Program-made: the position numbers and the translations under genes
The notes under the pieces: model-generated
Told to the model about the DNA's origin: nothing
The model's input: the letters and a program-made list of their open reading frames with translations, nothing else
Database searches by the model: none
Origin: Planctomycetia bacterium
GTDB taxonomy: Bacteria; Planctomycetota; Planctomycetia; Pirellulales; PNKZ01
Assembly: GCA_021413845.1 (NCBI GenBank)
Contig: JAIOPP010000149.1
Coordinates: 1 to 54,655 of the forward strand
DNA: 54,655 bases
Direction: 5' to 3'
In this document: positions 8,709-48,423 of the stretch, piece by piece
How positions within the stretch are numbered: the stretch's first letter is position 1
Layout: each line of letters opens with the position of its first letter

Positions 8709-9512
8709 TTACTTCTTCAGCTCCGCTGCGGTGGCTTGGTACTGGGCCCAAGCGGCTTCTTGCAGACTCTTGGCAATGTCGGCCGGAATGGCCGTCGGCG
8801 CGGCCAGCCCGAGCGGGCTTCTGCCGGTGACGACGCTATAGATGCCGCACGAATAGAGATACGAGCCCTGCAAGCCGGGATGCGCTTTATCGGTTGCGAA
8901 CAGGCTTTCTATCTTTTCTTTCGCCGGATTCTCGCCGAGGTAGCGGAAGTAGGCTTGGCTCGCATCGACGATCGACACGTTCAATTCCTTGCCGATGTCG
9001 ACGTGCATCCGATGCAGCCGCTCAAACCCTTTCGGAAAATCGCTGATGATCGAAGCGGTGCCGAAGAACACGATTTGCGCTTTGTGTTCTTGGACAAGCT
9101 CATGAAACTGGCGCGCGTAGGGTTGAAACGCCGGTTGCTGGGCGTTGTAGATTTCTTGCACGACGACGAAGTCCCACGGCGCGCCCGCACCGGGACCGGC
9201 GGCGATCATGCCGCGCGCCGTCGTCGGGCCGGTGCCGGCTTCCCAATGCGACTTCAACGACGCGCCCCCTTTCACGCAGCCGACCACCTTGATCGGGCGC
9301 GCTCCCTGATCGGACGCGGCCAAGTTTTCGATCAAGCGCTGCCCGACGATCGTCGGACATTGGCTGTTGCCGATCAGCAGCAGCGTAATCGGCTTGGCAG
9401 CCTCGACCTTCGTCGCGTCGTCGGCTGCTAGGGAAACAGACGCTGACGAGAATGCAACCAACCCTGCGAACGCCGCCGCAACGACCGCTCGAAAACTCCA
9501 TCGGATGCCCAT
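8709..9512 (-). CDS. SGNH/GDSL-type hydrolase-like exported protein
   Basis: This 267-residue protein has a signal peptide (RAVVAAAFAGLVAFSSASVSLA). LLLIGNSQC follows, where Ser50 of GNS is the expected nucleophile of SGNH hydrolases. The closing motif is seen as DKAHPGLQGSYLYS, supplying the Asp and His. The GNS and DxxH spacing fits SGNH esterases with a DUF4886-like layout, acting on acyl or acetyl groups of carbohydrates or lipids; the substrate is unknown. The ATG at 9512 is immediately before the signal peptide. It lies between the EF-hand genes and may be co-transcribed with the gene upstream (9563-10441), which ends 50 bp away. Confidence 0.75.
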   Translation of the reverse strand: MGIRWSFRAVVAAAFAGLVAFSSASVSLAADDATKVEAAKPITLLLIGNSQCPTIVGQRLIENLAASDQGARPIKVVGCVKGGASLKSHWEAGTGPTTARGMIAAGPGAGAPWDFVVVQEIYNAQQPAFQPYARQFHELVQEHKAQIVFFGTASIISDFPKGFERLHRMHVDIGKELNVSIVDASQAYFRYLGENPAKEKIESLFATDKAHPGLQGSYLYSCGIYSVVTGRSPLGLAAPTAIPADIAKSLQEAAWAQYQATAAELKK

Positions 9513-31736: not shown

Positions 31737-31869
31737 GATGGGGTTCACAGGTGCTCGGTCTTGGGCGTCGACGGTAGTCGAACATACGCCGTAGCATGAG
31801 AACCTAGCCGTAACGCGAATGCAACAGGATTCACCTCGCGTCCGTGGGCAGCGCGGCCGCGTCTCTACT

Positions 31870-33855
31870 TCACTGCTTCTCAAGCTCGGCGAGAGTCTTA
31901 CGGACCTTGTCCTTATACATCGCCGCGACCACTTCATGGTCGAGCACGAGCTTCGCGGCGGCTTGCTTCTCCGCCAACGTCGAAGTGGGAATGCCGCACA
32001 CCGCGTCGAACAAATCCAAAGTCATCATCGCCGCGAAGATGCTCCGCTGCGGCACCGGCCCGAGCCGCTTACGCAACAGCTCGACCGCTTCGCGCCGCAC
32101 TACGATGGCTTCCGCCGGCCGCTTCGCTAGATCGTAAAGCGAGGCGATCCGGTTCATGACCTTCCCCGTTTCATAGGGCGCGGCGACCGTCGCTTGTTGG
32201 TGGGCAAGTTCGATGGCCCGCTCGTAGCTTTGCTTGGATGTAAAAAACTGGACCGCGCTCTCGAAAGCCTTCGCCTGGCGGTCTTTCGCGGGATACGGCA
32301 ATTGGAGAAACGACCGTAGCTCGCTTTCGATTTGCTCGCTCGTCGAGCGTGGATCGTCGGCCATGATCTGCAATCGCAAGACCCCGGCCGCGCTCCGCTG
32401 ATACATCGTGGCCTGCGGATCGTTCGCCGCCGTAGCTGCGAACTCCAAGGCTTCCGCATAGCGTCGTTGAGTCCAGCGGAGCAGTGCCAATTGGCTATTC
32501 GCTTCGACGCGGTAGACCGGCAACGATTCTTTTTCGAGGTATGCTCGCGCGGCCGCTTCGGCTTCGTCGGGCTTGCTTCGATAAAGCTTGCCGAAAGTGG
32601 TGCGATACGCGAGGAGCTCGGCGTTGCCGGCCGCGCCGCGAGCGCTTGCGGCATCATCGACGATGAACTTCGTGCGCGTCCAGGCCCGCAGCATTCCGGC
32701 ACCGTAGCTCCGTGCCATCGCGGGATCTAGCGCAGGCTCCGGCTGCGTATAAGGGACTTCAAGCGTCGCCGCGATCACCGCCCCGTCGCGTAGCGCGAAG
32801 TGATGCGAGTTCATCTTCGGATTCACGGCGTTCGGCTTCTGCGGATCGGTCAATAAGTTGAGCGGCGTCATTACCGCTTGCGGCCGCTCTTCTTTGATCC
32901 AGGCGATGTACTCGTCGAGATTCTCTTTTACGCGCGGCACGCCGAGCCCGAGAAAGTGAAACGCTTCATGAATGTCCCCCCGAAGCGCAGGGCAATGAAA
33001 ATCGAGCGCATACTTCACTTGCTGCGCTGCGCCCAACTCTTGAATCGCTTGAATCTCGGGATAGATCGGCAGCGGGCCGTAATCGCGATTGTGGTCGTGC
33101 GGCGGACGGTTCTTTCCCTGATCGCCGGCTTGCACGCCGTCGCGATCGACCAGCGGCACGGCGAACAGAACGTAACGCTTACGAAACTCAATGCCGGCCG
33201 GCGAGTCCGACATCGCTTCTTGCAGGAAACCTTCGAGGACATAGCTTGCCATCGACTCACAAGCATGGTGCCGCGCCGTGACGAGCAGGGCGCTGCGCAT
33301 CGCGCCGGCTTCGCCGATTTGAAGCAGCTCGACGGGAGTGCCGTTGCGCGTCTTCGTGAGAAATTGTTGCTTCAGATTCGGGTTGCTCGCGTGCTTGGCG
33401 AGAAACGTCTTTAAGTCGTCCGGGAGATAAGGAATGGCGACGGCGAAGCGGACTTTCGGATGTTCGGCAGTGAAGTCGTAAGTAAAGGTCTCCCGTTTGT
33501 CTTGCGCCGGCACGCCGGTAAGCGGTGCGTAGACGACCTGCTCGGCCCCGAGCCAGCGCCACGACTTTCCTTCGTCGACGCTATAAGCAGGCCCTCGAAC
33601 GCCGATCTGTTGCGTCCCTACGAACGAGAACGTGACGCGCCCCGGCTGCGAAGCCGAGGCTTCGAAGTTCCAATAGAACCACGGCAGCCCGCCGCGCAGA
33701 TCAGGCACGACTTGCACGGCGCCGGCTTCGTTTTTCACGACGATTACGTTGCCGCCCGGGTAATCCGAACGGATCGTGAGCTTCATCTCCGCGGCCGATG
33801 TCGGCGAAGCCACGATGAGCAAGCCGAAGACAAGTCCGAGTTTTACGATCGGCAT
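31870..33855 (-). CDS. M14-type zinc carboxypeptidase-like exported protein
   Basis: A 661-residue protein with a signal peptide (KLGLVFGLLIVASPTSAA). An N-terminal beta-sandwich (about residues 25-140) precedes an M14 peptidase-like domain. The zinc motif HxxE is seen as His197 and Glu200 in ARHHACESM, DYGPLP and NRDYG lie in the substrate region, and LDFHCPALRGD supplies the third zinc ligand. The C-terminal 230 residues are helical and TPR-like. The family removes C-terminal residues from peptides or peptidoglycan stems; the actual substrate is unknown. It is 37 bp downstream of the esterase gene and probably co-transcribed with it. Confidence 0.8.
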   Translation of the reverse strand: MPIVKLGLVFGLLIVASPTSAAEMKLTIRSDYPGGNVIVVKNEAGAVQVVPDLRGGLPWFYWNFEASASQPGRVTFSFVGTQQIGVRGPAYSVDEGKSWRWLGAEQVVYAPLTGVPAQDKRETFTYDFTAEHPKVRFAVAIPYLPDDLKTFLAKHASNPNLKQQFLTKTRNGTPVELLQIGEAGAMRSALLVTARHHACESMASYVLEGFLQEAMSDSPAGIEFRKRYVLFAVPLVDRDGVQAGDQGKNRPPHDHNRDYGPLPIYPEIQAIQELGAAQQVKYALDFHCPALRGDIHEAFHFLGLGVPRVKENLDEYIAWIKEERPQAVMTPLNLLTDPQKPNAVNPKMNSHHFALRDGAVIAATLEVPYTQPEPALDPAMARSYGAGMLRAWTRTKFIVDDAASARGAAGNAELLAYRTTFGKLYRSKPDEAEAAARAYLEKESLPVYRVEANSQLALLRWTQRRYAEALEFAATAANDPQATMYQRSAAGVLRLQIMADDPRSTSEQIESELRSFLQLPYPAKDRQAKAFESAVQFFTSKQSYERAIELAHQQATVAAPYETGKVMNRIASLYDLAKRPAEAIVVRREAVELLRKRLGPVPQRSIFAAMMTLDLFDAVCGIPTSTLAEKQAAAKLVLDHEVVAAMYKDKVRKTLAELEKQ

Positions 33856-34790: not shown

Positions 34791-35621
34791 ATGCGACGAA
34801 CCGTTCTCTTACTCTCGTGCTTGGCGCTTCTTTCGCTTTCGACGCCGGTTCGGCACGTCGAGGCAACCGAACCTGCGGCTCCGGTGAAGAGCCTGATCTT
34901 GCCGGGCGAGTCGTTTCTCGTCGACGGTCGGCCGGCGTTCATCCTGTGGCCGGCTGCCGAGAATCGAAAGCAGCCGCAGCCGTGGATCATGTACGCGCCG
35001 ACGTTGCCGGGCCTGCCCGACACTCACGAGAAATGGATGCACGAGCAATTTCTCGCCGCGGGCGTGGCCGTGGCCGGCATCGATGCCGGAGAGGCGTACG
35101 GTAGTCCTCGCGGGCGGAAGTCGATGTCGGCGATGTACGATGAACTGACCGAAAAGCGTGGCTTCGCGAAGAGGGTTTGTCTGTTGGGTCGCAGTCGCGG
35201 CGGCTTGTTCGTTAGTAGTTGGGCGAGCGAAAACGGCAGCAAAGTCGCCGGCCTCGCGGGCATCTATCCGGTGTTCGATCTACAAACCTATCCGGGCCTA
35301 GCACGAGCGGCACCGGCGTATGAGTTGACTGTCGAACAATTGAAGTCGCAGCTGGCGGAGCACAACCCGATCGCGAAGCTCGACGTGCTGGCGAAGTCGA
35401 AGATTCCCGTCTGCATCATCCACGGCGATGTGGACAAGGTGGTGCCGCTGGAAAAAAACTCGGCAGTGCTAGCCGAGCGCTACAAGCAAGCCGGCGCTGC
35501 GGAAAGCGTGCAGTTGATCGTGGCCGCAGGGCAGGGGCACAATTACTGGGAAGGCTTCTTTCGTTGTCGCGAACTGATCGACTTCGCCATCCGCCAGGCG
35601 AAGGCCGGCGCAGCCCCTTAA
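34791..35621 (+). CDS. exported alpha/beta hydrolase, 276 aa
   Basis: A signal peptide (RRTVLLLSCLALLSLS) begins at ATG 34791. The alpha/beta fold shows the nucleophile elbow LLGRSRGGLFV (GxSxG), a strand-loop carrying the acidic residue in CIIHGDVDKVVP, and a late His in GQGHNYWEG, giving a full Ser-Asp-His triad. The substrate is unknown; its neighbours suggest ester-decorated sugars. A longer in-frame ORF to 34551 overlaps the divergent esterase gene and lacks a signal, so I rejected it. It converges with the LysR gene, with a four-base overlap of the 3' ends. Confidence 0.8.
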   Translation: MRRTVLLLSCLALLSLSTPVRHVEATEPAAPVKSLILPGESFLVDGRPAFILWPAAENRKQPQPWIMYAPTLPGLPDTHEKWMHEQFLAAGVAVAGIDAGEAYGSPRGRKSMSAMYDELTEKRGFAKRVCLLGRSRGGLFVSSWASENGSKVAGLAGIYPVFDLQTYPGLARAAPAYELTVEQLKSQLAEHNPIAKLDVLAKSKIPVCIIHGDVDKVVPLEKNSAVLAERYKQAGAAESVQLIVAAGQGHNYWEGFFRCRELIDFAIRQAKAGAAP

Positions 35622-36565
35622 GAGCGCGATTTGCTTGGGTTGCACTTCTTAATGATGCCGGCGAACGTGCGCGCGAGTTCTTCGTTCGCCGTTCCCACGC
35701 GAATGAAAAAGCGCACGGGCACGCGGCCGAAGTAGCGACTCATCGAGCGTTCGTGCAAGGTGGTGGTTCGGCCGCGCGGCAGGCGACCGTAGAGCAGCGC
35801 GATGCCGTGGTTGCGCTCGACATAAGTCCGAATCGTCGCCGCGAGCACCGGTTCGACGTGCGGCGCCGGGCCGTCGAATACACGGCTTCGGTCGAGCACT
35901 TCCGTAATTTCGGGCTCGTCGGAAAAAGTATGCAGCGATGAGATCAGCGAATACCGGCGCAAGTCGGAAGGATCGACGCTCCGTTTTTTCGCAAGCGGGT
36001 GCTTCTTCGACGTGACTAATAGCGTTTCCAACTCATAGCCCGGCTCTTGTTCGACTCCCGGCGCTACGGGATCGGCGATCCGTTGCGTCGTCAGGCCGAA
36101 GTCGGCGGCGCCCGCCTCGACCGCTTGCGCGATCTGGCCGTCGCGCAGTTCGAGGAACGCGAGGCGAACCCGCGGCCGTAGCTTAAGCAAGGCATCGACG
36201 GCCGCAGGGAGGTCTTCCTGAAAGATCCGCGGAGTTCCGGCAACGACCAGCCGCTCTTCGGCCGCGCCGCGCGCAACCTCGAAGCGCTTGCGCAACGACG
36301 CGGTTGACGTGATGATCGGCGCGACCATTTCGGCCAGCATTCGACCTTCGGGCGTGAGATGGCAGCCCCGGCCGTGCGGTTCGATCAGCTTGACACGAAA
36401 CTCGGCCTGTAGCGCGAGAACTTGTTCGCGCACCGTCGGATGCGTGAGCCCGATCGCGTGGGCGGCTGCCGCCAGGCTTCCCAAGCGGGCGGTTTCGCTG
36501 AAGCTGCGCAATTGCTGGAACGTGAGTTCCTTGTAGGTTCGGCGCTTCGCCGGAGGCCGTGGCAT
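35618..36565 (-). CDS. LysR-family transcriptional regulator
   Basis: The 315-residue protein has the N-terminal winged helix of LysR regulators: LTFQQLRSFSETARLGSLAA and then HPTVREQVLALQAEFRVKL (about residues 15-70). The effector domain (about 95-310) includes GTPRIFQEDLPAAV and the recognisable DFGLTTQRI. It starts at ATG 36565; the longer frame uses TTG 36592. LysR proteins respond to a small co-inducer and usually control the divergent gene. Here that gene is the first DUF4838 gene at 36748. A perfect palindrome lies 25 bases upstream of the start codon (36590-36603). Confidence 0.92.
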   Translation of the reverse strand: MPRPPAKRRTYKELTFQQLRSFSETARLGSLAAAAHAIGLTHPTVREQVLALQAEFRVKLIEPHGRGCHLTPEGRMLAEMVAPIITSTASLRKRFEVARGAAEERLVVAGTPRIFQEDLPAAVDALLKLRPRVRLAFLELRDGQIAQAVEAGAADFGLTTQRIADPVAPGVEQEPGYELETLLVTSKKHPLAKKRSVDPSDLRRYSLISSLHTFSDEPEITEVLDRSRVFDGPAPHVEPVLAATIRTYVERNHGIALLYGRLPRGRTTTLHERSMSRYFGRVPVRFFIRVGTANEELARTFAGIIKKCNPSKSRS

Positions 36566-36589
36566 GGGGTGCCGATCGCGATAAAGGTT

Positions 36590-36603
36590 CAACCTGTAGG
36601 TTG
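36590..36603. promoter_or_regulatory. palindrome CAACCT-GT-AGGTTG, candidate LysR operator
   Basis: Two perfect six-base arms flank a two-base centre. It lies in the 182-bp spacer between the LysR gene and the divergent DUF4838 operon, near the LysR start. A LysR-type T-N11-A core also fits here. Binding by this regulator is inferred from position only. Confidence 0.5.
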
Positions 36604-36747: not shown

Positions 36748-39375
36748 ATGCTTAAATCGTTCCTCGCCGTTCTCCTGCTTGCGGCACCCGCGACGGCTGC
36801 GGAGGTCGTGTTGTTTCGCGACGGCAAGTCCGATTATGAAATCGTGTTGCCGGATGCCTCGCCGACCCCGGAGTTCGCGGCTTGCTTAAAGCAAACAGCG
36901 AGGCTCGTGCAGTCGGCGTTCAAGGCCAACGGCGTCGAGATCGGTATCGTCGCCGAGAAGGAGCACGACGCCGCGAAGCCGGCGATCTTTCTCGGATCGA
37001 CGAACTTCGCCCTGAAGAACGGCGTCGACACCGAAAAGCTCGTCGATTGGAGCTATGTGCTCAGAGTCGTCGGACGCGATGTGATCGTCGCCGGCCACGA
37101 TCAACCGACGCCGCTGCCGATCGATCCGAGAACGAAGCAAGGGGAAGGTTGGGATCGCGTCGGCACGGCGAAGGCCGCCGTGGATTTTCTGCGGCAGTAC
37201 CTGGGAGTTCGGTTTCTCTATCCGGACCTTCCGGTTCGCACTCCGATCAGCGGCGCGGCCGGCATCGACTTGGTGAAGTCGCCGGCGATCGAGTATCTGC
37301 CGCTTAAGGCTGCCGTCTTGCCTGGCGATCTCAATGTCGCGAAAACTCCGGTGATGCGCGGCAACATGTCGTATCCGGCGAGCGCCAACTTCTACGACTT
37401 GGCGCACAACCGGTTCCCGCGCGTCGACGAACCGTTCGGCGCGCACACTTGGGAAACCGCGATTCCGGCCGCAAAGTACAACGCCGAGCATCCCGAATAC
37501 TTCGCGCTGCTGAGCGGCAAACGTTGGAAGGCCGGCGACGGAAATGCGCAATACTGCCTCTCGAATCCCGACGTGCAGGAGTTGATTTACCGGCACATGG
37601 CGAAGCAGTTCGATGAAGGGAGCGCGGCGGTCGACCTCGGCCAGCCCGACGGCTTCCGCGAGTGCCAATGCGAGGAGTGCGCGAAGCTTTACGACACCGG
37701 CAAGGATTGGAGCGAGAAGATTTGGATCTTCGATCGGATCATCGCGGAACGGCTGTTGAAATCGCACCCGACGAAATACGTCACGCTGGTGTCGTATATT
37801 CTCACGGAGAATCCCCCGAAGACCTACTCGAAGTTTCCCGCCAACGTGCGCGTGATGTTGACCGGCACGAATGAGGAAGACATCGCGCCGTGGCGCAAGG
37901 CGGAAGTGCCGGCCGGCTTCTACGGTTACATTTACAATTCTTGCCCGAACTTGGCCACGCGCTACACGCCGATGCGCACGCCGACCTATGTGGAAGCGCA
38001 AGTCAAACGGCTCACCGCGAACAAAATCGACTCGATCTATCGCGACGGCAACGGCTTCCTCTTCGGCACGGAAGGGCCCGTGTATTACACGATGGGGCGG
38101 ATGTTCGACGACCCGCAGCGGAACTCCGCGAAAGAGCTGCTGCCCGAGTTTTACGAGGCGGCGTTCGGCAAAGCGGCGACGAGCATGCGCTCGTTCTACG
38201 AGCAGCTCTATCACGCCATCAATCTCTACTCCGACCATATCGGCACGCGGAACGATGCTTGGACCTATCGCACGGTCGAAGGGCGCGGCCGGAAGTCGGT
38301 GACCGATCCGTTTCAATTCATCGCGTTCCTCTATCCGCCGAACGTCCTTTCCTCGCTCGATGCCGATCTCTCGCAAGCCGAGCGCTCGGCCGATACGGTT
38401 AAGGTGAAGACGCGGCTGGCGCTGGTCCGTCGCGAGTTCGAGTGGATTCGCAATCTGGCTCGCGTGGTGCATCTGTATCATGCGTTCGAGCTGCAACCGG
38501 ACGGGCCGTCGCGCGAGCGGTTGCTCGACGCGATCGACCGACGCAACGCCGCGGTCGATGCGCTCTACGGCGACCGCGGAAGCCCGAAGTCCGACGGCGA
38601 CTGGGCACAGGTTTTGTTTCCCATCATCGGACACGACGCGCACCACCTGCGATTAAAATACGACGGCTATCAAGAGCCCTATTCGCGCACGTGCCTCAAC
38701 TGGGACACGAAGGCGATGCGCAGCGCTCCGCTGCCGGGCAAGAAACGCCTGACCGTGGCCGCGGCGCAATCGGAGGTAACGTTCGATAGCCCGATCTGGA
38801 AGGATGCCGCTGCGAATGAGTTGACACTCGTAACCCCGCTGATCGGGCTGCCGCGCAAGACGACGGTGCGTCTGCTTTACGACAAGACGAACCTCTACTT
38901 GCGGGCCGAATGCGATTTGGAGCCGGCGGCCGCGACCGAGTTTCCCGTCTATGGCCGCGACACCGACCTACGGGGGCAAGAAGCGATTGATCTCTACCTT
39001 GCGCCGCAAGCCGGGAGCGACGTCGCGTATCGATTTATGTCCGGCGCGGATGCCAAGAGCCGGTGGGATGCCGCGGCCGGTTTTATTACCGATGCGATCG
39101 ATCCTCGGTACGGGCAAGACGATCCAACCTGGAACGGCGAGTGGCGAAACGAAACGCGGGTCGATGCGAAAGCCGCTCGCTGGGAGGCCTTGATCACGAT
39201 TCCTTTCAAGAGCCTCGGCGTGCAACCACCGAGCGCGGGAACGACCTGGCGCGGCAACATCGCTCGTTACCATCCTCTACGTCCGTACAAGGTCGATCGC
39301 TCGATCTGGTCGTCGACGCTCGGGAATGCGAGCATGGACGACAGAAGCGTGTTCGGCGAGATCGTGTTCGAGTAG
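36748..39375 (+). CDS. DUF4838 protein with CBM9-like C-terminal domain (copy 1)
   Basis: This 875-residue exported protein (signal MLKSFLAVLLLAAPATAA) has a GH20b/GH67-N-like N-terminal domain, visible as LKQTARLVQSAFKANG. DUF4838 follows (about residues 150-450), with HTWETAIPAAKYNAEHPEYF, SNPDVQELIY and a CxCxxC cluster (Cys306, Cys308, Cys311) that may bind metal. The C-terminal part from about 675 is a carbohydrate-binding CBM9-like domain, with VRLLYDKTNLYLRAECDLEP. DUF4838 proteins are considered putative glycosidases, but the substrate is not known. The start ATG at 36748 follows the LysR intergenic region. Paralogue of the next gene, 59 bp downstream. Confidence 0.85.
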   Translation: MLKSFLAVLLLAAPATAAEVVLFRDGKSDYEIVLPDASPTPEFAACLKQTARLVQSAFKANGVEIGIVAEKEHDAAKPAIFLGSTNFALKNGVDTEKLVDWSYVLRVVGRDVIVAGHDQPTPLPIDPRTKQGEGWDRVGTAKAAVDFLRQYLGVRFLYPDLPVRTPISGAAGIDLVKSPAIEYLPLKAAVLPGDLNVAKTPVMRGNMSYPASANFYDLAHNRFPRVDEPFGAHTWETAIPAAKYNAEHPEYFALLSGKRWKAGDGNAQYCLSNPDVQELIYRHMAKQFDEGSAAVDLGQPDGFRECQCEECAKLYDTGKDWSEKIWIFDRIIAERLLKSHPTKYVTLVSYILTENPPKTYSKFPANVRVMLTGTNEEDIAPWRKAEVPAGFYGYIYNSCPNLATRYTPMRTPTYVEAQVKRLTANKIDSIYRDGNGFLFGTEGPVYYTMGRMFDDPQRNSAKELLPEFYEAAFGKAATSMRSFYEQLYHAINLYSDHIGTRNDAWTYRTVEGRGRKSVTDPFQFIAFLYPPNVLSSLDADLSQAERSADTVKVKTRLALVRREFEWIRNLARVVHLYHAFELQPDGPSRERLLDAIDRRNAAVDALYGDRGSPKSDGDWAQVLFPIIGHDAHHLRLKYDGYQEPYSRTCLNWDTKAMRSAPLPGKKRLTVAAAQSEVTFDSPIWKDAAANELTLVTPLIGLPRKTTVRLLYDKTNLYLRAECDLEPAAATEFPVYGRDTDLRGQEAIDLYLAPQAGSDVAYRFMSGADAKSRWDAAAGFITDAIDPRYGQDDPTWNGEWRNETRVDAKAARWEALITIPFKSLGVQPPSAGTTWRGNIARYHPLRPYKVDRSIWSSTLGNASMDDRSVFGEIVFE

Positions 39376-39434
39376 GCTGGGAAATCGGTTTCGTTTTCGG
39401 GGCGCGACACACAGACGGAGAGCGAGCGTTCGCC

Positions 39435-41888
39435 ATGTTGAATCGCATCCTCATCGTGCCGATCGCGATCGTGTCGCTGCAATTCGTAGCGCTGCAAGCG
39501 GCGGACGTACCGCTTGTCGCCGAAGGAAAGCCGCGCGCGGCGATCGTCATCGCCGAAAAGCCGGCGCGATTGGTCAAGCTCGCGGCGGAAGAACTCCAAA
39601 GCTATCTGTTCAAGATTTCCGGCGCTACGTTGCCGATCGTGCATGCGCCTCCGAATAACGGCGACACGGCGATCTACATCGGCCGGAGCACGGCAACGGA
39701 CGCGCTGAAGATCGGCGACGAAGGATTGAAGTACGGCGCGTTTCGCATAGTCGCCGGCGAGAACCACGTCGTATTGTTGGGGCACGACCTCGACTTCATT
39801 CCTAAAGAGCCCTGGGCGCCGCATTACGGACACACTCCGAAGATGCTCGCCGACTGGGACAAGCTCACCGGGGAAAAGTGGGGCAATCCGATCGGGGCGA
39901 GTTTGATGCGCGGCTACAACAAGCCGCTCGGTTTGTGGCATGCCGATCGAGGAGGATCGCTGCAGGCCGTGTATGAATTGCTTCGGCGACTCGGTGTGCG
40001 GTGGTATATGCCGGGCGAACTGGGAGAGATCGTGCCGAAGACGGCGACGGTCAAGCTCGCGCCAACCGACGAAACCATTCGCCCGGACTTCGCGCAACGA
40101 GAATTTCATTTCACGTTCTACTGGGGTGCGACGAAAGACGACATTCTCTGGACACTCCGCCTGGGCCTCAACCACGGCGACGAAGTGCGCGGGCTCGGCG
40201 AACCCGGCCACGGCATGAGCGCCGTCACGATGCGCGACGAAACGAAGCAAGCGCATCCCGAATACTACGCCCTTTGGAACGGCAAGCGAGCGGTGGCGCA
40301 CTACGGAGGGGCGCAATGCTTGTCGTCGGAGGGACTGCTGCAGCAGAACGTGAAATACGTGCGCGCGATGTTCGATCTCTACGACGAGCCGATGGTTTCC
40401 GTCATGCCGGAAGATGGCTACAGCAATGCCTGCGAGTGCGAGCTTTGCCGCGGCAAAGAAACGCCGGCGCGTGGCTTCAGCGGCAAGATCTCCGACTATG
40501 TGTGGGACTACGTGAACCGCGTTGCCGTCGAAGTTTACAAGACGCACCCGCACAAGAAGGTGAGTTGCTTCGCGTACGGCACCTACACCCAGCCGCCGGG
40601 GAAGATCGCGAAGCTGAGCCCGAACTTAGTCGTCGGCATCGTGCAGCCGCGGCGGTTTTTCAACGATCCGGCGAAACGAAAGGAATTCGTCGACCTACGG
40701 CAAGCGTGGATCAAGAAACTGCCCTCGGCCGAGCCGCTGATGATCTGGGAGCATTATCCCTTCACGGCGCCGGGCAAGCCGTCGTACGGAGTTCCCGCTT
40801 ACTTTCCGCATCTGATCGCCGAAGACCTCCGGTCGTTGAAGGGAATCTCGCAAGGGGAAGTGATCGAGGTAATGTTCGACGAGAAGAAGTCGTATGGACT
40901 GCACGCGCCGGCGTTCAATCATTTGAATCTTTACGTGACGACGCGCCTCTATTGGGACGCCGAGCAAAACATCGACGCCTTGCTCGCCGAATACTATCGC
41001 AACTTCTACGGCCCTGCGGCCGCGGAGATGCAGGCCTTCATCGAATACTCCGAAGCGAGCTGGCGCGACCTTGCCAAAAGCGGGGATAAGAAGAGCGTCG
41101 AAAAGATCGAGCGGATGTTCGTCTTGCTCGCTAAGGCCAAGGAAAAGGCTCCGCCTGATTCCGCTTACGGACAACGCATCGCGCTGCTTGCGGATTACCT
41201 TCGCCCGATGGCCGAGCTGCGCGAGCAACTGGCGAAAGGCCGCGGCAACGTCCCTTCGGCACGAGCCACGAAGCTCTCGAAGGTCGGCATCAAGATCGAC
41301 GGCAAACTCGATGAGCCGGCCTGGAAGGGGCTCGCCGCTTACGGTTTCGGCGAGCTAGAGACGGGCCGCGTACCGGCGTTCAAAAGCTCGTTTCGCACCT
41401 GCTGGGCCGACGGCAATCTCTACTTCGGCATCACTTGTTCCGACCGCGACACGAAGACCCTCAACATCGGCACGCGAAAGAACGAAGATGGCCGCATCTG
41501 GAACGGCGACTGCGTCGAGCTGTTGCTGGAAACGCAGATCCACTCCTATTATCAACTCGTCGTGAATCCGGCCGGCGCGATCATCGATCTCGATCGCAAA
41601 GGAGGACTCAACGAAAGTTGGTCGTCTGAAGCCGAGGTTGCCGCTCACATCAGCGAGGATTCATGGACCGTCGAGATTCGCATTCCCATGGCCGGCGACG
41701 GTAAGACGGAGAATATCGATCCGCTGCATGGGGTGTCGGGCCGCGAGCCGACGGAGCTTTATCCCTGGTATATCAACGTCTGCCGACAACGAGTACGCGA
41801 CAACGGCTCGGAACTCTCGGCCTTCTCGCCGACCTCGAAAAACGACTTTCACGACATGCTGAAATTCGGATCGCTCTATGCCAAATAA
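39435..41888 (+). CDS. DUF4838 protein with CBM9-like C-terminal domain (copy 2)
   Basis: An 817-residue paralogue of the preceding gene. The signal peptide is MLNRILIVPIAIVSLQFVAL. A GH67-N-like domain follows (KLAAEELQSYLFKISGATLP), then DUF4838 with HPEYYALWNGKRAV and a CxCxxC cluster (Cys333, Cys335, Cys338). A C-terminal CBM9-like module begins near residue 615: IDGKLDEPAWKGL, then NLYFGITCSDRD. The N-terminal half has an unusually large insert, LLGHDLDFIPKEPWAPHYGH. The longer frame starting at 39063 overlaps the previous gene and is rejected. The product shares its layout but differs in detail from copy 1, so the pair probably splits substrates or acts in sequence. Confidence 0.84.
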   Translation: MLNRILIVPIAIVSLQFVALQAADVPLVAEGKPRAAIVIAEKPARLVKLAAEELQSYLFKISGATLPIVHAPPNNGDTAIYIGRSTATDALKIGDEGLKYGAFRIVAGENHVVLLGHDLDFIPKEPWAPHYGHTPKMLADWDKLTGEKWGNPIGASLMRGYNKPLGLWHADRGGSLQAVYELLRRLGVRWYMPGELGEIVPKTATVKLAPTDETIRPDFAQREFHFTFYWGATKDDILWTLRLGLNHGDEVRGLGEPGHGMSAVTMRDETKQAHPEYYALWNGKRAVAHYGGAQCLSSEGLLQQNVKYVRAMFDLYDEPMVSVMPEDGYSNACECELCRGKETPARGFSGKISDYVWDYVNRVAVEVYKTHPHKKVSCFAYGTYTQPPGKIAKLSPNLVVGIVQPRRFFNDPAKRKEFVDLRQAWIKKLPSAEPLMIWEHYPFTAPGKPSYGVPAYFPHLIAEDLRSLKGISQGEVIEVMFDEKKSYGLHAPAFNHLNLYVTTRLYWDAEQNIDALLAEYYRNFYGPAAAEMQAFIEYSEASWRDLAKSGDKKSVEKIERMFVLLAKAKEKAPPDSAYGQRIALLADYLRPMAELREQLAKGRGNVPSARATKLSKVGIKIDGKLDEPAWKGLAAYGFGELETGRVPAFKSSFRTCWADGNLYFGITCSDRDTKTLNIGTRKNEDGRIWNGDCVELLLETQIHSYYQLVVNPAGAIIDLDRKGGLNESWSSEAEVAAHISEDSWTVEIRIPMAGDGKTENIDPLHGVSGREPTELYPWYINVCRQRVRDNGSELSAFSPTSKNDFHDMLKFGSLYAK

Positions 41889-42663
41889 ACTTTACGCACG
41901 CCAGCAGCGCACGCTCTTCCTACTGTTCGCGAGCCTCGTTGCGCCGGCATCGTCGGCCGTGGCCGACTACGTGGAAGATCGCCAAGCGGCGATGAAGCTC
42001 ACGGCTGCCGGGAAGCACGAAGAAGCTTTCGCTGCATTCCGGAAGCTGGCCCAAGGCAAGGTGACGCCGTTTCAGCAGACCGATGCACTCGAACACGCTT
42101 CGCAATGCGCGCTGCGCTTGAAGCGCCTCGAAGAAGCGATGGAGGTCGCGAAGCAGATCCCGCTGCCGGCGCATGCCAAGCTCGCCCAGATGCGCGTGCT
42201 CGGAGACAGCTACGGGTCGAATGAAATCGTCAAGCAGTTCGGCGACGAAGATTTATTGCGCTGGCCCGACGGCATCATCGCCGACGGGGCATTTGCACGC
42301 GGCAGTGCGTGGTTCGTCGTGAAGGATGGATCACGAGCGGAGCAAGACCTTCTCTTGGCGGCCTCCTATGCCACGGAAGAAAACCTGCGCGGACAAATCT
42401 GGCTCAGCCTCGGCGCGACCTATCGGCAATACTTGAAAGACGACGCGAAAGCGATCGCGGCGTATCGCCGAACGTACGAGACGGCGAACGAATTCAAGCA
42501 TTGCAGCGCCGCAGTTGCGATCGCCGGAATCCTTCGCAGCCAAAGCCGTGAGGCCGAGGCCCAGGCCGAGTTGCAGCGCATCGATGAGCGCAAGATGACG
42601 ATTCCCGTTTACCGCGATATGCTACTCAAGGCCAAGGCCGCGACCGTTCCGAATCACCAATAA
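41878..42663 (+). CDS. small exported TPR-like protein
   Basis: This 261-residue protein overlaps the DUF4838 gene by 11 bases, so translation is probably coupled. After a short hydrophobic N terminus (TLFLLFASLVAPASSAVA) it is built of helical hairpins with TPR/SEL1-like spacing: AAGKHEEAFAAFRKLAQG, LKRLEEAMEVAKQIP and YLKDDAKAIAAYRRTYETA. No catalytic motif is seen. A scaffold or adaptor in the envelope is the simplest reading, serving the enzymes encoded around it. It is not a recognised family beyond TPR-like repeats. Confidence 0.72.
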   Translation: MPNKLYARQQRTLFLLFASLVAPASSAVADYVEDRQAAMKLTAAGKHEEAFAAFRKLAQGKVTPFQQTDALEHASQCALRLKRLEEAMEVAKQIPLPAHAKLAQMRVLGDSYGSNEIVKQFGDEDLLRWPDGIIADGAFARGSAWFVVKDGSRAEQDLLLAASYATEENLRGQIWLSLGATYRQYLKDDAKAIAAYRRTYETANEFKHCSAAVAIAGILRSQSREAEAQAELQRIDERKMTIPVYRDMLLKAKAATVPNHQ

Positions 42664-42682
42664 CTTTCGCTCGAATAACACG

Positions 42683-44296
42683 ATGCCTCGAATCATGCCG
42701 AACATTCGCTTCCGAATTCTCAGTGCGTTGCTATGCGGAGCTTTCGCCGTGCTGCTTGCCGCCGAGCCGCTGCGTGCCGAAGTCACGGTCGTTGAGCGAG
42801 ACGACTGCATTCGCATCACCGTCGATGGCCAGGTCTTCACAGAATGGCGGTATAAGGATTGGGTCGCGCCGTTTCTGTATCCGGTCGTCGGGCCGAACGG
42901 TGAGAACGTCACGCGGCACTATCCGATGAAGTCGGGCATGCCGGGCGAAGAGCAAGATCACCCGTGGCACCGCTCGATTCGCTTTTCGCATAGCGACGTA
43001 AACGGCTTCAACTTTTGGTGGGCGCCCGGCAAAGAGAGGGCAGGGCACACAGCCGAGATCAAGCTCGAAAAAATCGAGCGACTCACCTCGGGCAAGACCG
43101 GCGAAGCGATTTTTTGGAATCAATGGCTCGGCGACGGCAAGCTTGTCTTGCGCGAGAAGGTGCGACTCGCGGTCACACCGCTCGCCGGCCATCAGACATT
43201 GCTGGACTACGACATCGAACTCCATGCCGGAGCTGCGCCGGTCGTGTTCGGCGATAAGCGCGACGGTGGCTTGCTCGTACGCGTGGCGGGAACGATGAAG
43301 GTCGAAGACGAGAAGGGAAATAAATTCCAAGGGACGATCGTCAACAGCCGCGGCGACCGCAACGCCGACGCTTGGGGAAAACAAGCCGAATGGACCGACT
43401 ACTTCGGGCCCGACGCTACCGGCAAGACGGTCGGCATCGCGATATTCGATCATCCTTCGAACTTGCGATTCCCTACGCATTGGCATGCTCGAACCTACGG
43501 CCTGATGACGGCCAATCGCTTCGGAACGGATCACTTTCTCGGAAAGTACGGCGACCACAAGACGTTGATCTGCGCGCCGGCTAAGAACTGCAATTGCCCC
43601 GCCTGCGAGTCGCACTCGGGCGACTACACGATTCCCGCCGGCGGGAGCTTGAAGCTCCGAAATCGATTCTATATCCACCACGGCGACGCAACGACGGCCG
43701 ACGTCGCGCAGCAGTATCGCGATTACACGTCCGATCCGGAATCGACGTTGGCCCTCATGCAAGCGTTGATGCGGCAATTCAAGTCGAGCACTCTGGTCGA
43801 GCAATATGCGAACACCGATTTTACCGCTTGGCCGGCCGAGTTCGCGGCGCAAAGAAGCGAAGCGCTGCGACTGCGCGCTTTGGCATATTCCGTCGTGAAG
43901 AAGGGGAAGAAATCGGAAGAAGACTACAAGTCGGCGATCAAGCTCGACCCGGAAAACGGCGGGCTATGGATGGGCCTCGCCGACAACTACGCGAATGCGC
44001 TCGACGATTCGCCACAAGCCGAGGCCGCATATCGGCGCGTGTTGGAGCTCACCGGAAAAACGTACGGCTGGATGCCTATTCAAGCGACCATCTCCTTGGC
44101 GCGAAGTTTCATCGATCGGGCCAAGCCCGACGAGGCGTTGAAGCTGCTCAAGGAGCTCGACGCCGTAACCACGATGGCCCCGGCGTGGCGCATCAAGATC
44201 TTGCGAACCTACGGCCATGCCTACGCCGCGCAAGGCAAAGAAGAAGCCTCGCTCGCCAAGTTTCGCGAGGCATTGAAACTGGAAGCGACGAAGTAG
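42683..44296 (+). CDS. DUF6807 (PmoA-like) protein with TPR C-terminal half
   Basis: A 537-residue exported protein (signal RILSALLCGAFAVLLAA). Its first half matches the DUF6807/PmoA-like family: TEWRYKDWVAPFLYPVVGP, DHPWHRSIRFSHSDVNGF, FDHPSNLRFPTHWHARTYG. These supply His-rich metal- or carbohydrate-binding positions. A cysteine pair lies in NCNCPACESHSGDYT. The second half is TPR-like (about residues 360-537), ending LLKELDAV and AQGKEEASLAKFREALKLE. DUF6807 has no firmly established function. Gaps to the neighbours are about 20 bp on both sides, so it is part of one transcript. Confidence 0.83.
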   Translation: MPRIMPNIRFRILSALLCGAFAVLLAAEPLRAEVTVVERDDCIRITVDGQVFTEWRYKDWVAPFLYPVVGPNGENVTRHYPMKSGMPGEEQDHPWHRSIRFSHSDVNGFNFWWAPGKERAGHTAEIKLEKIERLTSGKTGEAIFWNQWLGDGKLVLREKVRLAVTPLAGHQTLLDYDIELHAGAAPVVFGDKRDGGLLVRVAGTMKVEDEKGNKFQGTIVNSRGDRNADAWGKQAEWTDYFGPDATGKTVGIAIFDHPSNLRFPTHWHARTYGLMTANRFGTDHFLGKYGDHKTLICAPAKNCNCPACESHSGDYTIPAGGSLKLRNRFYIHHGDATTADVAQQYRDYTSDPESTLALMQALMRQFKSSTLVEQYANTDFTAWPAEFAAQRSEALRLRALAYSVVKKGKKSEEDYKSAIKLDPENGGLWMGLADNYANALDDSPQAEAAYRRVLELTGKTYGWMPIQATISLARSFIDRAKPDEALKLLKELDAVTTMAPAWRIKILRTYGHAYAAQGKEEASLAKFREALKLEATK

Positions 44297-44317
44297 GCAG
44301 CAGCATCGACTGGCGAC

Positions 44318-45700
44318 ATGAATCGAAAACCTAACGTGCATCGGATCGAATTCTTGAACATCACTCACATACTCAAAAGACTCCTGACGGCGCTGATCCT
44401 GTCGGGCTTCGCGAACATCGCCGCAGCGGAAGGGCCCTTCATGGCCGGCACGGCGAAAGTCGACATCACGCCGACCCCGGAAACCGCCGTCGATCTCTCC
44501 GGCCGGCATCTTGCGCCGCGCGACTCGCTCTATGCGCGCGTGCTCGTGCTCAAAGACGGCGACACATCGCTGGCGATCGTCTCGCTCGACTTGATCGTGT
44601 TCGCCTCGCCGAAGGTCGTCGCCGAAGCGAAAGCGAAATGGGGCGTCGATCATGTCATCCTCAGCGCCACGCACACGCATGCGGGCATGAACCCGCGCGG
44701 CATGCTCATTAAGCCTCCCGCGATGCCCGATTGGACGCGCAGCAACAAGGCTCCGGCCGACACGATCGATTGGCCCGGGCTTTCGGCGGACCCTTGGTAT
44801 GCCGCGACGGAAGAGAAGGTCGTCGCCGCGATCGGCACGGCGATGCAAAACCTTTTCCCGGCGCGCATTGCGTCCGGTAAAGGATCGTTCGACAGTGCCT
44901 ACATGGCGCACAACCGACGGCTGGTACGCAACGGCCGCGCGAGCCCGATGTGGGAAAATCCCGATCGCAAACCCACTTCGCCGATCGATCCTACGGTCGG
45001 CGTGATTCGCGTCGAAGATCTGGCGGGCAAGACTCGAGCGCTGGCCGTGCAATACGCTTGCCATCCGGTCGCGACGATGGGGGCCGGTGAAATGTCGCGA
45101 GATTTTCCGGGCGGGATGGTCGATTACGTCGAAGAGCAACTCGGCCCTGAGTGCCTCGCCATGTATCTGCAAGGCGCGCAGGGCGATATCGATCCGTACG
45201 ACTTGCACAATCTGCGGGGTGAGAATCGGTTCAATATCCCGAAGCAGGCCGGCATTTCGCTCGGCAAAGGAGCTTTGCGCATCGCGGCCGATCTGAAGAC
45301 TCGGCCTGAGAGCGATCGGGCCGCTCTCGAGATCAAAGAAAGCCTCCTCACGATCCCGAACCGCAGCGGCAACGGAACCACCGACGTAGGATTGCTCACC
45401 GTCGTCGTCGATCGGAATCTGGCGTTGATCGCGATTCCGGGCGAGCCGTTCATACAACATCAACTCGATCTCACGGCGCGCTCGCCGATCGCGAACACTT
45501 TCATCTTGGGAGTCGCCTACCCAGGCAAAGGGTCGCCGTTCGTCGTCTACATTCCGACGGTGCAAGCCGTGAAGGAAGGGGGCTACGGCGCCACGGAGTG
45601 CAGCTTCCTTGCCGCCGACGCGGGCGAACGGATCGTGGCCGAATGCCTCGGCAAGATCCAAGAACTTCTCGACGCGAAATCTACGGAGAAAAAGCAATGA
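44318..45700 (+). CDS. neutral ceramidase-like exported protein
   Basis: This 460-residue protein has the motif SATHTHAGM (His119, His121), typical of zinc-dependent neutral/alkaline ceramidases, followed by YACHPVATMGAGEMSRDFPG and LQGAQGDIDPYD. A hydrophobic leader is present after MNRKPN (KRLLTALILSGFANIAAAEG). Family members hydrolyse ceramide or, in bacteria, related acyl-amide glycolipids; planctomycetes encode many such proteins with unproven substrates. The C-terminal beta-domain of eukaryotic ceramidases is short here. It starts 22 bp after the DUF6807 gene and ends with an ATGA overlap with the dipeptidase. Confidence 0.82.
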   Translation: MNRKPNVHRIEFLNITHILKRLLTALILSGFANIAAAEGPFMAGTAKVDITPTPETAVDLSGRHLAPRDSLYARVLVLKDGDTSLAIVSLDLIVFASPKVVAEAKAKWGVDHVILSATHTHAGMNPRGMLIKPPAMPDWTRSNKAPADTIDWPGLSADPWYAATEEKVVAAIGTAMQNLFPARIASGKGSFDSAYMAHNRRLVRNGRASPMWENPDRKPTSPIDPTVGVIRVEDLAGKTRALAVQYACHPVATMGAGEMSRDFPGGMVDYVEEQLGPECLAMYLQGAQGDIDPYDLHNLRGENRFNIPKQAGISLGKGALRIAADLKTRPESDRAALEIKESLLTIPNRSGNGTTDVGLLTVVVDRNLALIAIPGEPFIQHQLDLTARSPIANTFILGVAYPGKGSPFVVYIPTVQAVKEGGYGATECSFLAADAGERIVAECLGKIQELLDAKSTEKKQ

Positions 45701-46584
45701 CGATGCTGCGCAACGCAGAGCCCGCCGCGACAGCCGGCACCGACGACGCAGCTCGCCGCGCCTATTGGGCCGAGCAAATGGAGCTCGGCTACGAACTGAT
45801 CGAACGAGTTCTCCCGTTCGAGGTGCAAGAGTGCGGCGAAGGTTTCGCTTCGCTCCGCGATGCGGCAGACTCGGCCGGCGTGGAGATGCAGTTCTCGTCG
45901 ACGAAGATCGCCGGTGAATTGGAGCGAGTTTATTTCATGCGCTCGAGCCTCGTCGACGACGTCGTCGCAGTCGGCCGAAAGATGAACGAGCGGGGTTGGA
46001 TTCTGAAGATCGAAGACGGCTACCGCTCGCTCGAAATGCAAGGCCAACTCGTGCGGAAGCCCGAGTTGTTCGACGTGATCCTGAAGAAATGTATCTGGGA
46101 GAACGGCGGTCAGGTTCCTTCGGTCGAAATGATGTTTCGCCGCGCGCTGGTGTTGATCGCCAACATCCCTAAGATCGGCACCCACATGTCGGGCTCGGCG
46201 ATCGACGTCTCGGTGTTTCGTCGCGACGACGGCAGCGAAGTCTCGCGCGGCTACCCTTATCTGGAAATGAGCGAACGGACCCCGATGCGCTCGCCATTCG
46301 TCGCAGCGGAACACTTGAAGAATCGCCTCGAAATCACGGCGATGCTCGAAGCCGAAGGGTTCGTGCATTTCCCTTTCGAGTTTTGGCACTTCAACAAAGA
46401 CGACGCGATGGGGCACATCCTCCGCGACAAACCCGCCCCGGCACGCTTCGGGCCCGTGCATTGGGACCCCCAAACCAATCGGGTCGTCCGAGTGGAGGAG
46501 CCGCTGACGCCGCTCAATCCGCTGCCGGTGATCGAACGAGAAATCGCGGCAGCCCTGAAGCGGAGCACGGGCGGCGCCGAATAG
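45697..46584 (+). CDS. M15 family D-Ala-D-Ala dipeptidase-like protein (VanX-like)
   Basis: This 295-residue protein overlaps the preceding gene by four bases (ATGA), so it is translated from the same message. The zinc and catalytic set is intact: KIEDGYRSLEMQ (Arg110), GTHMSGSAIDVSV (His163, Asp170) and FEFWHFNKDD (Glu228, His231). This matches VanX/Ddp-type peptidases that cleave D-alanyl-D-alanine. No signal peptide is visible, unlike the genes before it, so it would act in the cytoplasm. Family members recycle cell-wall dipeptides or give glycopeptide resistance; pairing with a ceramidase-like enzyme suggests a catabolic role for an imported amide. Confidence 0.86.
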   Translation: MTMLRNAEPAATAGTDDAARRAYWAEQMELGYELIERVLPFEVQECGEGFASLRDAADSAGVEMQFSSTKIAGELERVYFMRSSLVDDVVAVGRKMNERGWILKIEDGYRSLEMQGQLVRKPELFDVILKKCIWENGGQVPSVEMMFRRALVLIANIPKIGTHMSGSAIDVSVFRRDDGSEVSRGYPYLEMSERTPMRSPFVAAEHLKNRLEITAMLEAEGFVHFPFEFWHFNKDDAMGHILRDKPAPARFGPVHWDPQTNRVVRVEEPLTPLNPLPVIEREIAAALKRSTGGAE

Positions 46585-46773: not shown

Positions 46774-48396
<1,623 letters not shown>

Positions 48397-48423
48397 GTTT
48401 CACCTTTTGCCGATCGCTCGGAT

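What the first reader, a model, noticed from the sequence alone, without database searches (positions are those of the whole stretch)
36748..46584. Six-gene DUF4838-DUF4838-TPR-DUF6807-ceramidase-M15 locus, a possible undescribed degradation system
All six genes point the same way with gaps of 59 bp or less, or overlaps (11 and 4 bases). Five appear exported, and the last, a VanX-like dipeptidase, appears cytoplasmic. The mix of putative glycosidases with carbohydrate-binding domains, an amidase of ceramidase type and a D-Ala-D-Ala-type peptidase suggests stepwise breakdown of a compound having sugar, acyl-amide and peptide parts, such as a glycolipid or peptidoglycan-like polymer. The pairing of DUF4838 with ceramidase-like and M15 genes in one regulated operon is not one I know.
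Basis: partly seen in the sequence, partly recalled or inferred. Interest (0 to 1): 0.62.

Follow-up and report, generated by a model that had tools for sequence, protein, structure and literature searches.

The report
Planctomycete glycan-and-amide degradation gene cluster
Six neighbouring bacterial genes for a sugar-cutting enzyme pair, helper proteins, a ceramidase-like amide-cutting enzyme and an intracellular peptide-cutting enzyme belong to a larger set that recurs in distant bacteria, so they probably work together to break down an unknown decorated sugar compound.

Summary
Observation confirmed: six same-strand genes at 36748-46584, gaps of 59 bp or less, overlaps of 11 and 4 bases; five have signal-peptide-like starts, the M15 gene none. 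Interpretation partly supported. I found the exact six-gene order nowhere else, but its pieces recur in Planctomycetota and Verrucomicrobiota: DUF4838 with DUF6807-TPR and ceramidase-like; DUF4838-CBM9 fused to the TPR protein; ceramidase-like or DUF4838 next to M15. The set extends left of the divergent LysR gene: a beta-helix gene and an esterase are syntenic elsewhere, and the beta-helix gene also sits in a long same-strand cluster that ends in M15. Ceramidase-like genes lie at 25 of 50 M15 loci (2.0 expected), DUF4838 at 6 of 80 (0.57 expected). The ceramidase-like protein keeps the zinc ligands but has Asp where ceramidases have their catalytic Ser, is shorter and misses the Pfam cut-off, so 'ceramidase' is probably a misnomer. 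DUF4838 has a GH115/GH84/GH67-like fold; one paper annotates a DUF4838 protein as GH163. Most likely this is a catabolic cluster for an extracellular glycan with amide-linked amino-acid or peptide groups; the substrate is unproven. My searches of the open paper library found no description of it.

The parts
36748..39375 (+). g1: probably exported DUF4838 protein (glycosidase-like; one published DUF4838 protein is annotated GH163)
   Evidence: Pfam DUF4838 115 bits; relatives 58% (L201), 53% (L202), 44% (L206), each beside a DUF6807-TPR gene
39435..41888 (+). g2: probably exported DUF4838 protein with C-terminal CBM9-like domain
   Evidence: Pfam; model matches GH115/GH84/GH67/GH20; fused to the g3 TPR domain in other genomes
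41878..42663 (+). g3: probably exported TPR protein, 11-base overlap with g2; counterpart of the TPR tail of DUF4838-CBM9-TPR proteins
   Evidence: phmmer of g3 hits the C-terminal end of DUF4838 proteins in L066, L067, L068, L071, L039, L073, L111, L138, L180 and shorter pieces in L075, L144
42683..44296 (+). g4: probably exported DUF6807 domain plus TPRs
   Evidence: Pfam; full-length relatives of 58-67% in 7 of 50 M15-bearing genomes
44318..45700 (+). g5: probably exported ceramidase-like zinc hydrolase (GDIDP type)
   Evidence: structure match only to neutral ceramidases; zinc ligands kept, Asp292 at the catalytic Ser position; relatives 68-73% in L002, L003, L087, L201
45697..46584 (+). 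g6: VanX-like M15 peptidase without signal peptide
   Evidence: Pfam M15; H163, D170, E228, H231 and R110 invariant in the 5 rows of A1; H-x6-D plus E-x-W-H found in 85 of 86 rows
35618..36592 (-). divergent LysR regulator, probable regulator of both arms (inference)
   Evidence: Pfam HTH_1 and LysR_substrate
29637..31937 (-). left arm: AXE1/S9-type esterase-like protein
   Evidence: Pfam; 63-66% relative directly before the beta-helix gene in G004 (L193/L194) and 68% in L205
26073..29531 (-). left arm: right-handed beta-helix protein, distantly PL6/pectate-lyase-like
   Evidence: Pfam Beta_helix, Chondroitinas_B; 53-60% relatives in L087/L191, L193, L205; at E up to 1e-60 in 3 of 97 relatives, G000, G004, G006
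24970..26010 (-). BNR_2 (propeller) protein, possible member of the left arm
   Evidence: Pfam BNR_2; no match to the BNR gene of L191 at E 1e-8
31870..33855 (-). M14 carboxypeptidase-like protein between the arms; membership not shown
   Evidence: Pfam Peptidase_M14 29 bits; no relative in the loci compared
8709..9512 (-). short protein matching the C-terminal domain (not the GDSL domain) of a GDSL-type protein; 27 kb from g1, membership doubtful
   Evidence: 63.6% to L087 protein residues 260-482; a similar stretch lies between g4 and g5 relatives in L031 and L201

Best explanation
The six genes are the right arm of a larger catabolic cluster, of the polysaccharide-utilisation kind, for an extracellular glycan or glycoconjugate that carries amide-linked amino-acid or short peptide groups. 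Shown: gene order, families, conserved zinc sites, recurrence of the blocks in two phyla. Inferred: LysR senses a breakdown product; the exported beta-helix protein and the two DUF4838 proteins cut the glycan, esterases strip acyl groups, DUF6807 and the TPR and CBM9 parts bind or position it; the exported ceramidase-like zinc enzyme (g5) cuts an amide bond; a transporter encoded elsewhere imports the product; the cytoplasmic M15 enzyme (g6) cuts a small (di)peptide-like product, which goes into amino-acid metabolism.
For: Conserved blocks: DUF4838, DUF6807-TPR, GDSL-C-terminal-domain protein, ceramidase-like (L201); DUF4838, DUF6807-TPR (L202; other order in L206); DUF6807-TPR, ceramidase-like (L203, L204); DUF6807-TPR, esterase, beta-helix (L205). 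One contig of a Verrucomicrobiota MAG (L191 and L087): DUF6807-TPR, BNR, beta-helix, S9/GCE, GDSL, ceramidase-like, another gene, M15 on one strand. L138: DUF4838-CBM9-TPR, sodium symporter, ceramidase-like, LysR, M15, a 31% relative of the window esterase, an M20-type hydrolase, DUF4838. Enrichment: ceramidase-like at 25 of 50 M15 loci, 2.0 genes expected, P about 2e-19; DUF4838 at 6 of 80, 0.57 expected, P about 3e-5; in the 47 rank-chosen loci alone 3 against 0.36, P 0.006. Other M15 clusters add a galactonate-type MFS, RidA, class III aminotransferase or MlrC-like genes. Zinc sites kept.
Against: No transporter is among the six genes. 52 of 80 M15 loci have no ceramidase-like gene in the stretch held (many stretches end at contig ends), and M15 also sits beside GH57-like, AGE or other genes. 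The ceramidase-like subfamily linked to M15 in most such loci (GDIRP) is only about 30% identical to g5. The relatives G004 and G006, which have g5 and g4-like TPR pieces, lack M15 at E 1e-10 (G006 is 75% complete). Two M15-linked ceramidase-like proteins, L112 and L161, keep the Ser. No promoter or transcript evidence. The substrate class is a guess from family names.
Confidence: 0.5

Rival explanations
1. Glycoprotein-type substrate: DUF4838 works like GH163 (releases GlcNAc-containing arms), BNR proteins trim terminal sugars, the ceramidase-like enzyme cuts a sugar-asparagine or N-acyl amide, and M14, M15 and M20 peptidases finish the peptide.
For: One DUF4838 protein is annotated GH163 (PMC9870897, passage) and a GH163 enzyme cuts GlcNAc-beta-1,2-Man in complex N-glycans (PMC10154615, passages). 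Fold search ranks GH84 and GH20 enzymes after GH115. BNR_2 gene beside the DUF6807-TPR gene in L191, and a like stretch in one open frame with the ceramidase-like part in G006. PIG-L gene beside ceramidase-like and M15 in G005.
Against: Best fold matches are GH115 alpha-glucuronidases; the beta-helix and heparinase-like genes fit acidic polysaccharides better. The DHDPS-family gene of L191 has no NCBIfam match at 1e-5, so a sialic-acid route is not shown.
Confidence: 0.18
2. Uronic-acid polysaccharide bearing amide-linked amino acids: beta-helix (PL6/pectate-lyase-like) and heparinase-like enzymes cut the chain, DUF4838 acts on uronosyl groups, g5 cuts the uronamide. A narrower form of the best explanation.
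For: Chondroitinas_B and PelN-like matches of 26073-29531, heparinase II/III-like gene in L191, GH115/GH67 fold of DUF4838, galactonate-type MFS in an M15 cluster (L132).
Against: All these matches are distant (PelN 85 bits vs cut-off 740; MFS 226 vs 395); lyase catalytic residues were not tested.
Confidence: 0.2
3. Glycolipid or sphingolipid breakdown with g5 as a true ceramidase.
For: The g5 model matches only neutral ceramidases among solved structures at E under 0.001; zinc ligands are kept.
Against: The catalytic Ser position is Asp in g5 and Arg in the GDIRP subfamily (16 of 22 rows of A2), though L112 and L161 keep Ser; g5 has 460 residues against 646-688; below the Pfam cut-off; no sphingolipid gene was named in the proteins scanned.
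Confidence: 0.06
4. Peptidoglycan fragment use: M15 is a D-Ala-D-Ala dipeptidase and the exported enzymes work on muropeptides.
For: VanX-type H-x6-D and E-x-x-H motif and Arg110.
Against: Below the VanX and D-Ala-D-Ala dipeptidase equivalog cut-offs (34 vs 320, 39 vs 176); VanX Asp142 (substrate contact, recalled) aligns with Leu189; no lysozyme-like, amidase_2/3 or NagZ-like name came up in the proteins scanned.
Confidence: 0.12
5. Loose neighbourhood: these genomes gather exported enzymes and M15 is a passenger without a shared role.
For: M15 has several other neighbourhoods; the exact block was not seen again; a tRNA-Arg and an integrase lie right after M15, so the right end is a rearrangement point.
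Against: Enrichment and same-strand, often closely spaced pairs across two phyla. M15 and the GDIRP subfamily occur together: 35 of 50 M15-bearing genomes against 15 of 392 in the phylum sample, although the 50 include Verrucomicrobiota and the two sets are not matched by lineage.
Confidence: 0.14

Closest known systems
Polysaccharide utilisation loci and CAZyme gene clusters
   Same: Co-directional exported carbohydrate-active and esterase genes with a regulator, shared between genomes in blocks
   Different: With a ceramidase-like protein and a cytoplasmic VanX-like peptidase and no transporter among the six; no SusC/SusD-type name in the window proteins scanned, which is not a full test
GH163, known from a Bacteroides thetaiotaomicron enzyme (PMC10154615)
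   Same: Pfam domain DUF4838 (link by one published row); glycosidase fold
   Different: Substrate unknown here; CBM9 and TPR parts; CAZy assignment not tested
Neutral ceramidase (2zws, 2zxc, 4wgk)
   Same: Fold and four zinc ligands
   Different: Asp (g5) or Arg (GDIRP subfamily) at the catalytic Ser position; 460 instead of 646-688 residues
VanX and DdpX-type D-Ala-D-Ala dipeptidase (1r44)
   Same: M15 zinc site and catalytic Glu, no signal peptide
   Different: 295 against 202 residues, Leu at VanX Asp142, far under the equivalog cut-offs
Microcystin degradation genes (MlrC)
   Same: An MlrC-like M81 gene lies between ceramidase-like and M15 in L086 and L099
   Different: MlrC score 165 vs cut-off 999 (L099); not in the window; MlrA not looked for

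Membership tests
Neutral ceramidase | Fold of the zinc-containing domain | tested here: met
   g5 model (mean pLDDT 78) matches 2zws E 2e-22 and 4wgk E 1e-20; the only 4 chains under 0.001 are neutral ceramidases
Neutral ceramidase | Zinc ligands His97, His204, Glu411, Tyr448 (roles recalled) | tested here: met
   align with window H119, H249, E376, Y411; invariant in the 22 rows of A2
Neutral ceramidase | Catalytic Ser (Ser274 of the Pseudomonas precursor, role recalled) | tested here: not met
   window has Asp292 of GDIDP. In A2: 16 rows Arg, 2 Asp, 2 Ser (L112, L161), 1 Gly, 1 Asn
Neutral ceramidase | Pfam Ceramidase_alk gathering score | tested here: not met
   18.2 bits against 32.1
Neutral ceramidase | Hydrolysis of ceramide | not testable with these tools
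   needs an assay
Peptidase M15 (VanX-like) | Zinc ligands and catalytic Glu, E-x-x-H type | tested here: met
   H163, D170, E228, H231; 85 of 86 rows by pattern; motif as in PMC3927764 (passages)
VanX/DdpX D-Ala-D-Ala dipeptidase | NCBIfam equivalog cut-off | tested here: not met
   34.4 vs 320 and 39.2 vs 176 bits
VanX/DdpX D-Ala-D-Ala dipeptidase | Asp142 substrate contact (recalled) | tested here: inconclusive
   aligns with Leu189, Glu190 next to it (one pairwise alignment)
DUF4838 / GH163 | Pfam DUF4838 over its cut-off | tested here: met
   115 and 131 bits against 26.6
DUF4838 / GH163 | CAZy GH163 sequence membership and GlcNAc-releasing activity | not testable with these tools
   no GH163 sequence at hand; one published row equates a DUF4838 protein with GH163
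GH115 / GH67 / GH84 | Same fold over N-terminal and barrel domains | tested here: met
   Z 19.0 to 4zmh, 467 aligned, rmsd 4.4; GH84 2v5c Z 15.7, rmsd 6.5, 418 aligned; GH67 1l8n Z 13.9, rmsd 4.8, 436 aligned; model mean pLDDT 69
GH115 / GH67 / GH84 | Catalytic residues | not tested
   D327 is invariant in the 9 rows of A3; not mapped onto solved active sites
Polysaccharide utilisation locus (Bacteroidota type) | SusC/SusD pair | tested here: inconclusive
   no such Pfam name among the window proteins scanned; not all ORFs were scanned

The most novel reading that the evidence does not exclude
The M15-linked ceramidase-like proteins, in two subfamilies with Arg or Asp in place of the catalytic Ser, are a new kind of exported zinc amidase that frees amino acids or dipeptides from decorated glycans, and the associated M15 family is a cytoplasmic dipeptidase of new specificity; together with DUF4838 they form an undescribed pathway shared by Planctomycetota and Verrucomicrobiota for amide-decorated glycans.
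Probability: 0.25. Interest if true: 0.75.

Novelty: new variant of a known kind. Interest (0 to 1): 0.5.

Why it matters
It names a set of genes (DUF4838, DUF6807-TPR, ceramidase-like, M15, beta-helix) whose blocks recur between phyla, so that they can be tested as one pathway. It also suggests that a good part of the ceramidase-like proteins in these bacteria may not be ceramidases: the 50 M15-bearing genomes counted hold 851 of them (about 17 each), and 20 of the 22 aligned here lack the catalytic Ser (the 22 were chosen for lying near M15, so this is not a sample of the 851).

Tried and rejected
Looked for the six-gene block in 97 relatives: g5 relatives of 68% or more only in G004 and G006 besides the own genome, M15 only in the own genome and G005, so no relative searched has the block. 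M15 in the phylum sample: 4 of 392.

Considered the LysR gene as a marker of one conserved regulon and dropped it: 23-30% to the LysR proteins of five other M15 clusters, which are 50-93% to each other. Considered DUF6807 alone as a marker and dropped it: 87 of 97 relatives have a match; only full-length DUF6807-TPR relatives were used (7 of 50). The promoter and terminator scan gave nothing above shuffles. MlrC-, AGE- and dehydrogenase-like neighbours elsewhere score far under their NCBIfam cut-offs; the one clear enzyme name is a 4-aminobutyrate transaminase after the GDIRP gene of L176 (582 bits vs 506.65), in a genome (G165) not among the four with M15.

Labels and counts corrected: one search counted ceramidase-like genes within 8 genes at 26 of 80 loci; the profile search gave 27, and L088 makes 28. 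In one search the label D4838a for cluster 16 is wrong (its window member is a planctomycete cytochrome-type protein), so L139 and L148 are not DUF4838 loci. In one search the DUF4838 rows of L092 and of L132 at -2 are CBM9 matches of the GSDH protein (for L132; L092 by its cluster) and were dropped; L105 is a partial gene 9 kb away and was left out of the 6 of 80. In one search the 21 GDIRP loci include one fragment (L103). In my notes the GDSL match of window 8709-9512 is to the C-terminal part only. One search scored at most 34 candidates a genome, so ceramidase-like density is a lower bound and the 2.0 expected too. Of 80 M15 loci, 50 genomes were counted: 47 by rank (L086-L132) plus L138, L144 and L155, added because they have DUF4838; the DUF4838 density uses the 47. 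Gene calls in the loci were made by my own ORF script, not by a trained gene finder.

No SusD, lysozyme-like or sphingolipid gene name came up, but not every ORF was scanned.
Full report
What is there. Six + strand genes lie at 36748-46584 with spacings +59, -11, +19, +21 and -4 bases. Pfam names are DUF4838; DUF4838 plus CBM9; TPR (below cut-off); DUF6807 plus TPR; ceramidase-like (below cut-off); M15. By eye g1-g5 start with signal-like stretches and g6 does not (printed). A LysR gene (35618-36592, -) is divergent. To the right come a tRNA-Arg, an integrase overlapping it and a Prim-Pol gene, so the cluster ends at an integrated element.

The exact block is rare. Among 97 relatives, g5 has relatives of 68-73% only in G004 and G006, M15 only in G005 (72%), g1 at E up to 1e-40 only in G004 (54%) besides an own paralog. 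In G004 the end of a DUF6807-TPR gene, and in G006 a TPR gene alone, precedes g5. In a phylum sample M15 is in 4 of 392 genomes.

M15 neighbourhoods. A pattern scan of one genome for each of 84,980 species gave 92 M15 relatives, of which the best 80 loci were kept, by record title mostly Planctomycetota and Verrucomicrobiota MAGs. A ceramidase-like gene lies in 28 of 80: 27 plus L088. Of the 31 genes, 28 are on the M15 strand, and in 10 of 80 loci one lies directly upstream by 4-89 bases (L089, L090, L091, L093, L094, L096, L098, L106, L150, L161). In the 50 genomes counted, 851 ceramidase-like genes in 318 Mb give 2.0 expected in the 50 loci; 25 loci have one (P about 2e-19). DUF4838: 183 genes in the 50 genomes; with the density of the 47 rank-chosen genomes 0.57 are expected in the 80 loci and 6 loci have one by the profile (L111, L121, L132, L138, L144, L155; P about 3e-5); in the 47 loci alone 3 against 0.36 (P 0.006). 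These Poisson values ignore the relatedness of the loci. On the M15 tree the label 'ceramidase-like nearby' (31 of 86 rows) needs 13 changes against 25.5 in shuffles: clustered, but not one origin.

Ceramidase-like types. Of the 22 aligned proteins, 16 carry Arg at the Ser position (GDIRP type), window g5 and L087 carry Asp, L112 and L161 keep Ser, one each has Gly and Asn; the zinc ligands are invariant. 35 of 50 M15-bearing genomes have a GDIRP-type gene at 480 bits or more, linked or not, against 15 of 392 in the phylum sample, 2 of them among the 4 with M15 (the sets are not matched by lineage). The own genome has one too, unlinked, at G000:C56:61059-62393. The g5 type has relatives in L087 and L088, where M15 also follows. 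The g5 model matches only neutral ceramidases.

DUF4838 links. DUF4838-CBM9 is fused to the g3-like TPR domain in L066, L067, L068, L071, L039, L073, L111, L138 and L180, with pieces in L075 and L144: g2 and g3 are two halves of one protein elsewhere. In L180 this fusion overlaps a GDIRP gene by 4 bases in a genome, G359, that is not among the four with M15. In L132 a DUF4838-CBM9 gene overlaps M15 by 4 bases in a cluster with ceramidase-like, MFS, RidA, class III aminotransferase, GSDH and SMP-30 genes. L138 holds both DUF4838 types, ceramidase-like, LysR and M15. The g2 model (mean pLDDT 69) is closest to GH115 (Z 19), then GH84 and GH67. One paper lists a DUF4838 protein as GH163 (PMC9870897, passage); a GH163 enzyme cuts GlcNAc-beta-1,2-Man (PMC10154615, passages).

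The set is wider than six genes. Window 26073-29531 (beta-helix) and 29637-31937 (esterase) are syntenic with G004 (53% and 63-66%) and with L205, where they follow a DUF6807-TPR relative (60%, 68%, 64%). Among 97 relatives the beta-helix gene occurs at E up to 1e-60 in G000, G004 and G006, the same three that have g5; all three are of one family and the G006 match is only 35% identical, so this is weak. One contig of a Verrucomicrobiota MAG (L191 and L087) has on one strand a Gfo/Idh, an epimerase, a DHDPS-family and a heparinase-like gene, two long overlapping ORFs without a name, DUF6807-TPR (62%), BNR, beta-helix (58%), S9/GCE (27% to the window esterase, so not its counterpart), GDSL, ceramidase-like (68%), an unnamed gene and M15 (79%). 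L201 has DUF4838 (58%), DUF6807-TPR (65%), the GDSL-C-terminal-domain protein (64%), ceramidase-like (68%) and a second ceramidase-like gene, in window order but without g2, g3 and M15; its genome has M15 on another contig (L095). Seven of 50 M15-bearing genomes have the full-length DUF6807-TPR protein.

Reading. These blocks make a shared function likely. Family names point to an extracellular glycan with ester and amide decorations and to a small amide or dipeptide that reaches the cytoplasm. Which glycan is open; GH163-like, uronic-acid and peptidoglycan readings are kept as rivals. M15 has the VanX-type site but is far under the VanX and D-Ala-D-Ala dipeptidase cut-offs.

In print. The library holds open PMC papers only. 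Searches: DUF4838 (1 paper); ceramidase with Planctomycetes and gene cluster (0); DUF6807, DUF1080 or planctomycet (9,328 holding at least one, 15 listed, none of these with DUF6807); neutral ceramidase catalysis (3); VanX or M15 with Verrucomicrobia (65, 10 listed); DUF6807, PF14100 or PF16126 (3); ceramidase with planctomycet (3); GH163 (43, 25 listed); BT1044 with N-glycan (3). By listings none describes this cluster. Passages were read in PMC9870897, PMC10154615, PMC3927764, and, without use for the argument, PMC8374693, PMC10710508 and PMC10971088. Subscription journals are not held, so absence there is not shown.

Noticed in passing
window 46774-54655: tRNA-Arg (acg) with a tyrosine recombinase overlapping it on the other strand, a Prim-Pol gene, a type III-like DNA methyltransferase and an ORF with weak type III restriction and Cas3 matches: an integrated element at a tRNA gene.
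   Followed up: partly
window 12898-14637: A protein with caspase (Peptidase_C14) and FGE-sulfatase domains.
   Followed up: no
window 42683-44296 and DUF4838 proteins: The DUF6807 protein of the window and the DUF4838 proteins each carry a C-x-C-x-x-C motif; in DUF4838 it follows the conserved Asp. A shared metal or disulfide role is possible.
   Followed up: no
L032:1798-4269: In G006 the g5 relative is one open frame of about 823 codons whose C-terminal stretch resembles the BNR protein of L191, a possible ceramidase-like/BNR fusion.
   Followed up: partly
L104, L107, L108, L110, L114, L121, L132: Verrucomicrobiota share a cluster of ceramidase-like, MFS and M15 genes, usually with a GSDH protein, some with RidA, LysR or lactonase: a second, more uniform system around the same pair.
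   Followed up: partly
L086 and L099: An MlrC-like M81 gene sits between the ceramidase-like gene and M15.
   Followed up: no
L129, L130, L134, L136, L142, L143: M15 relatives without a ceramidase-like gene in the stretch held sit next to phosphoglycerate-mutase-like or GH57-like genes (names of these two clusters are from the sequence by eye).
   Followed up: no
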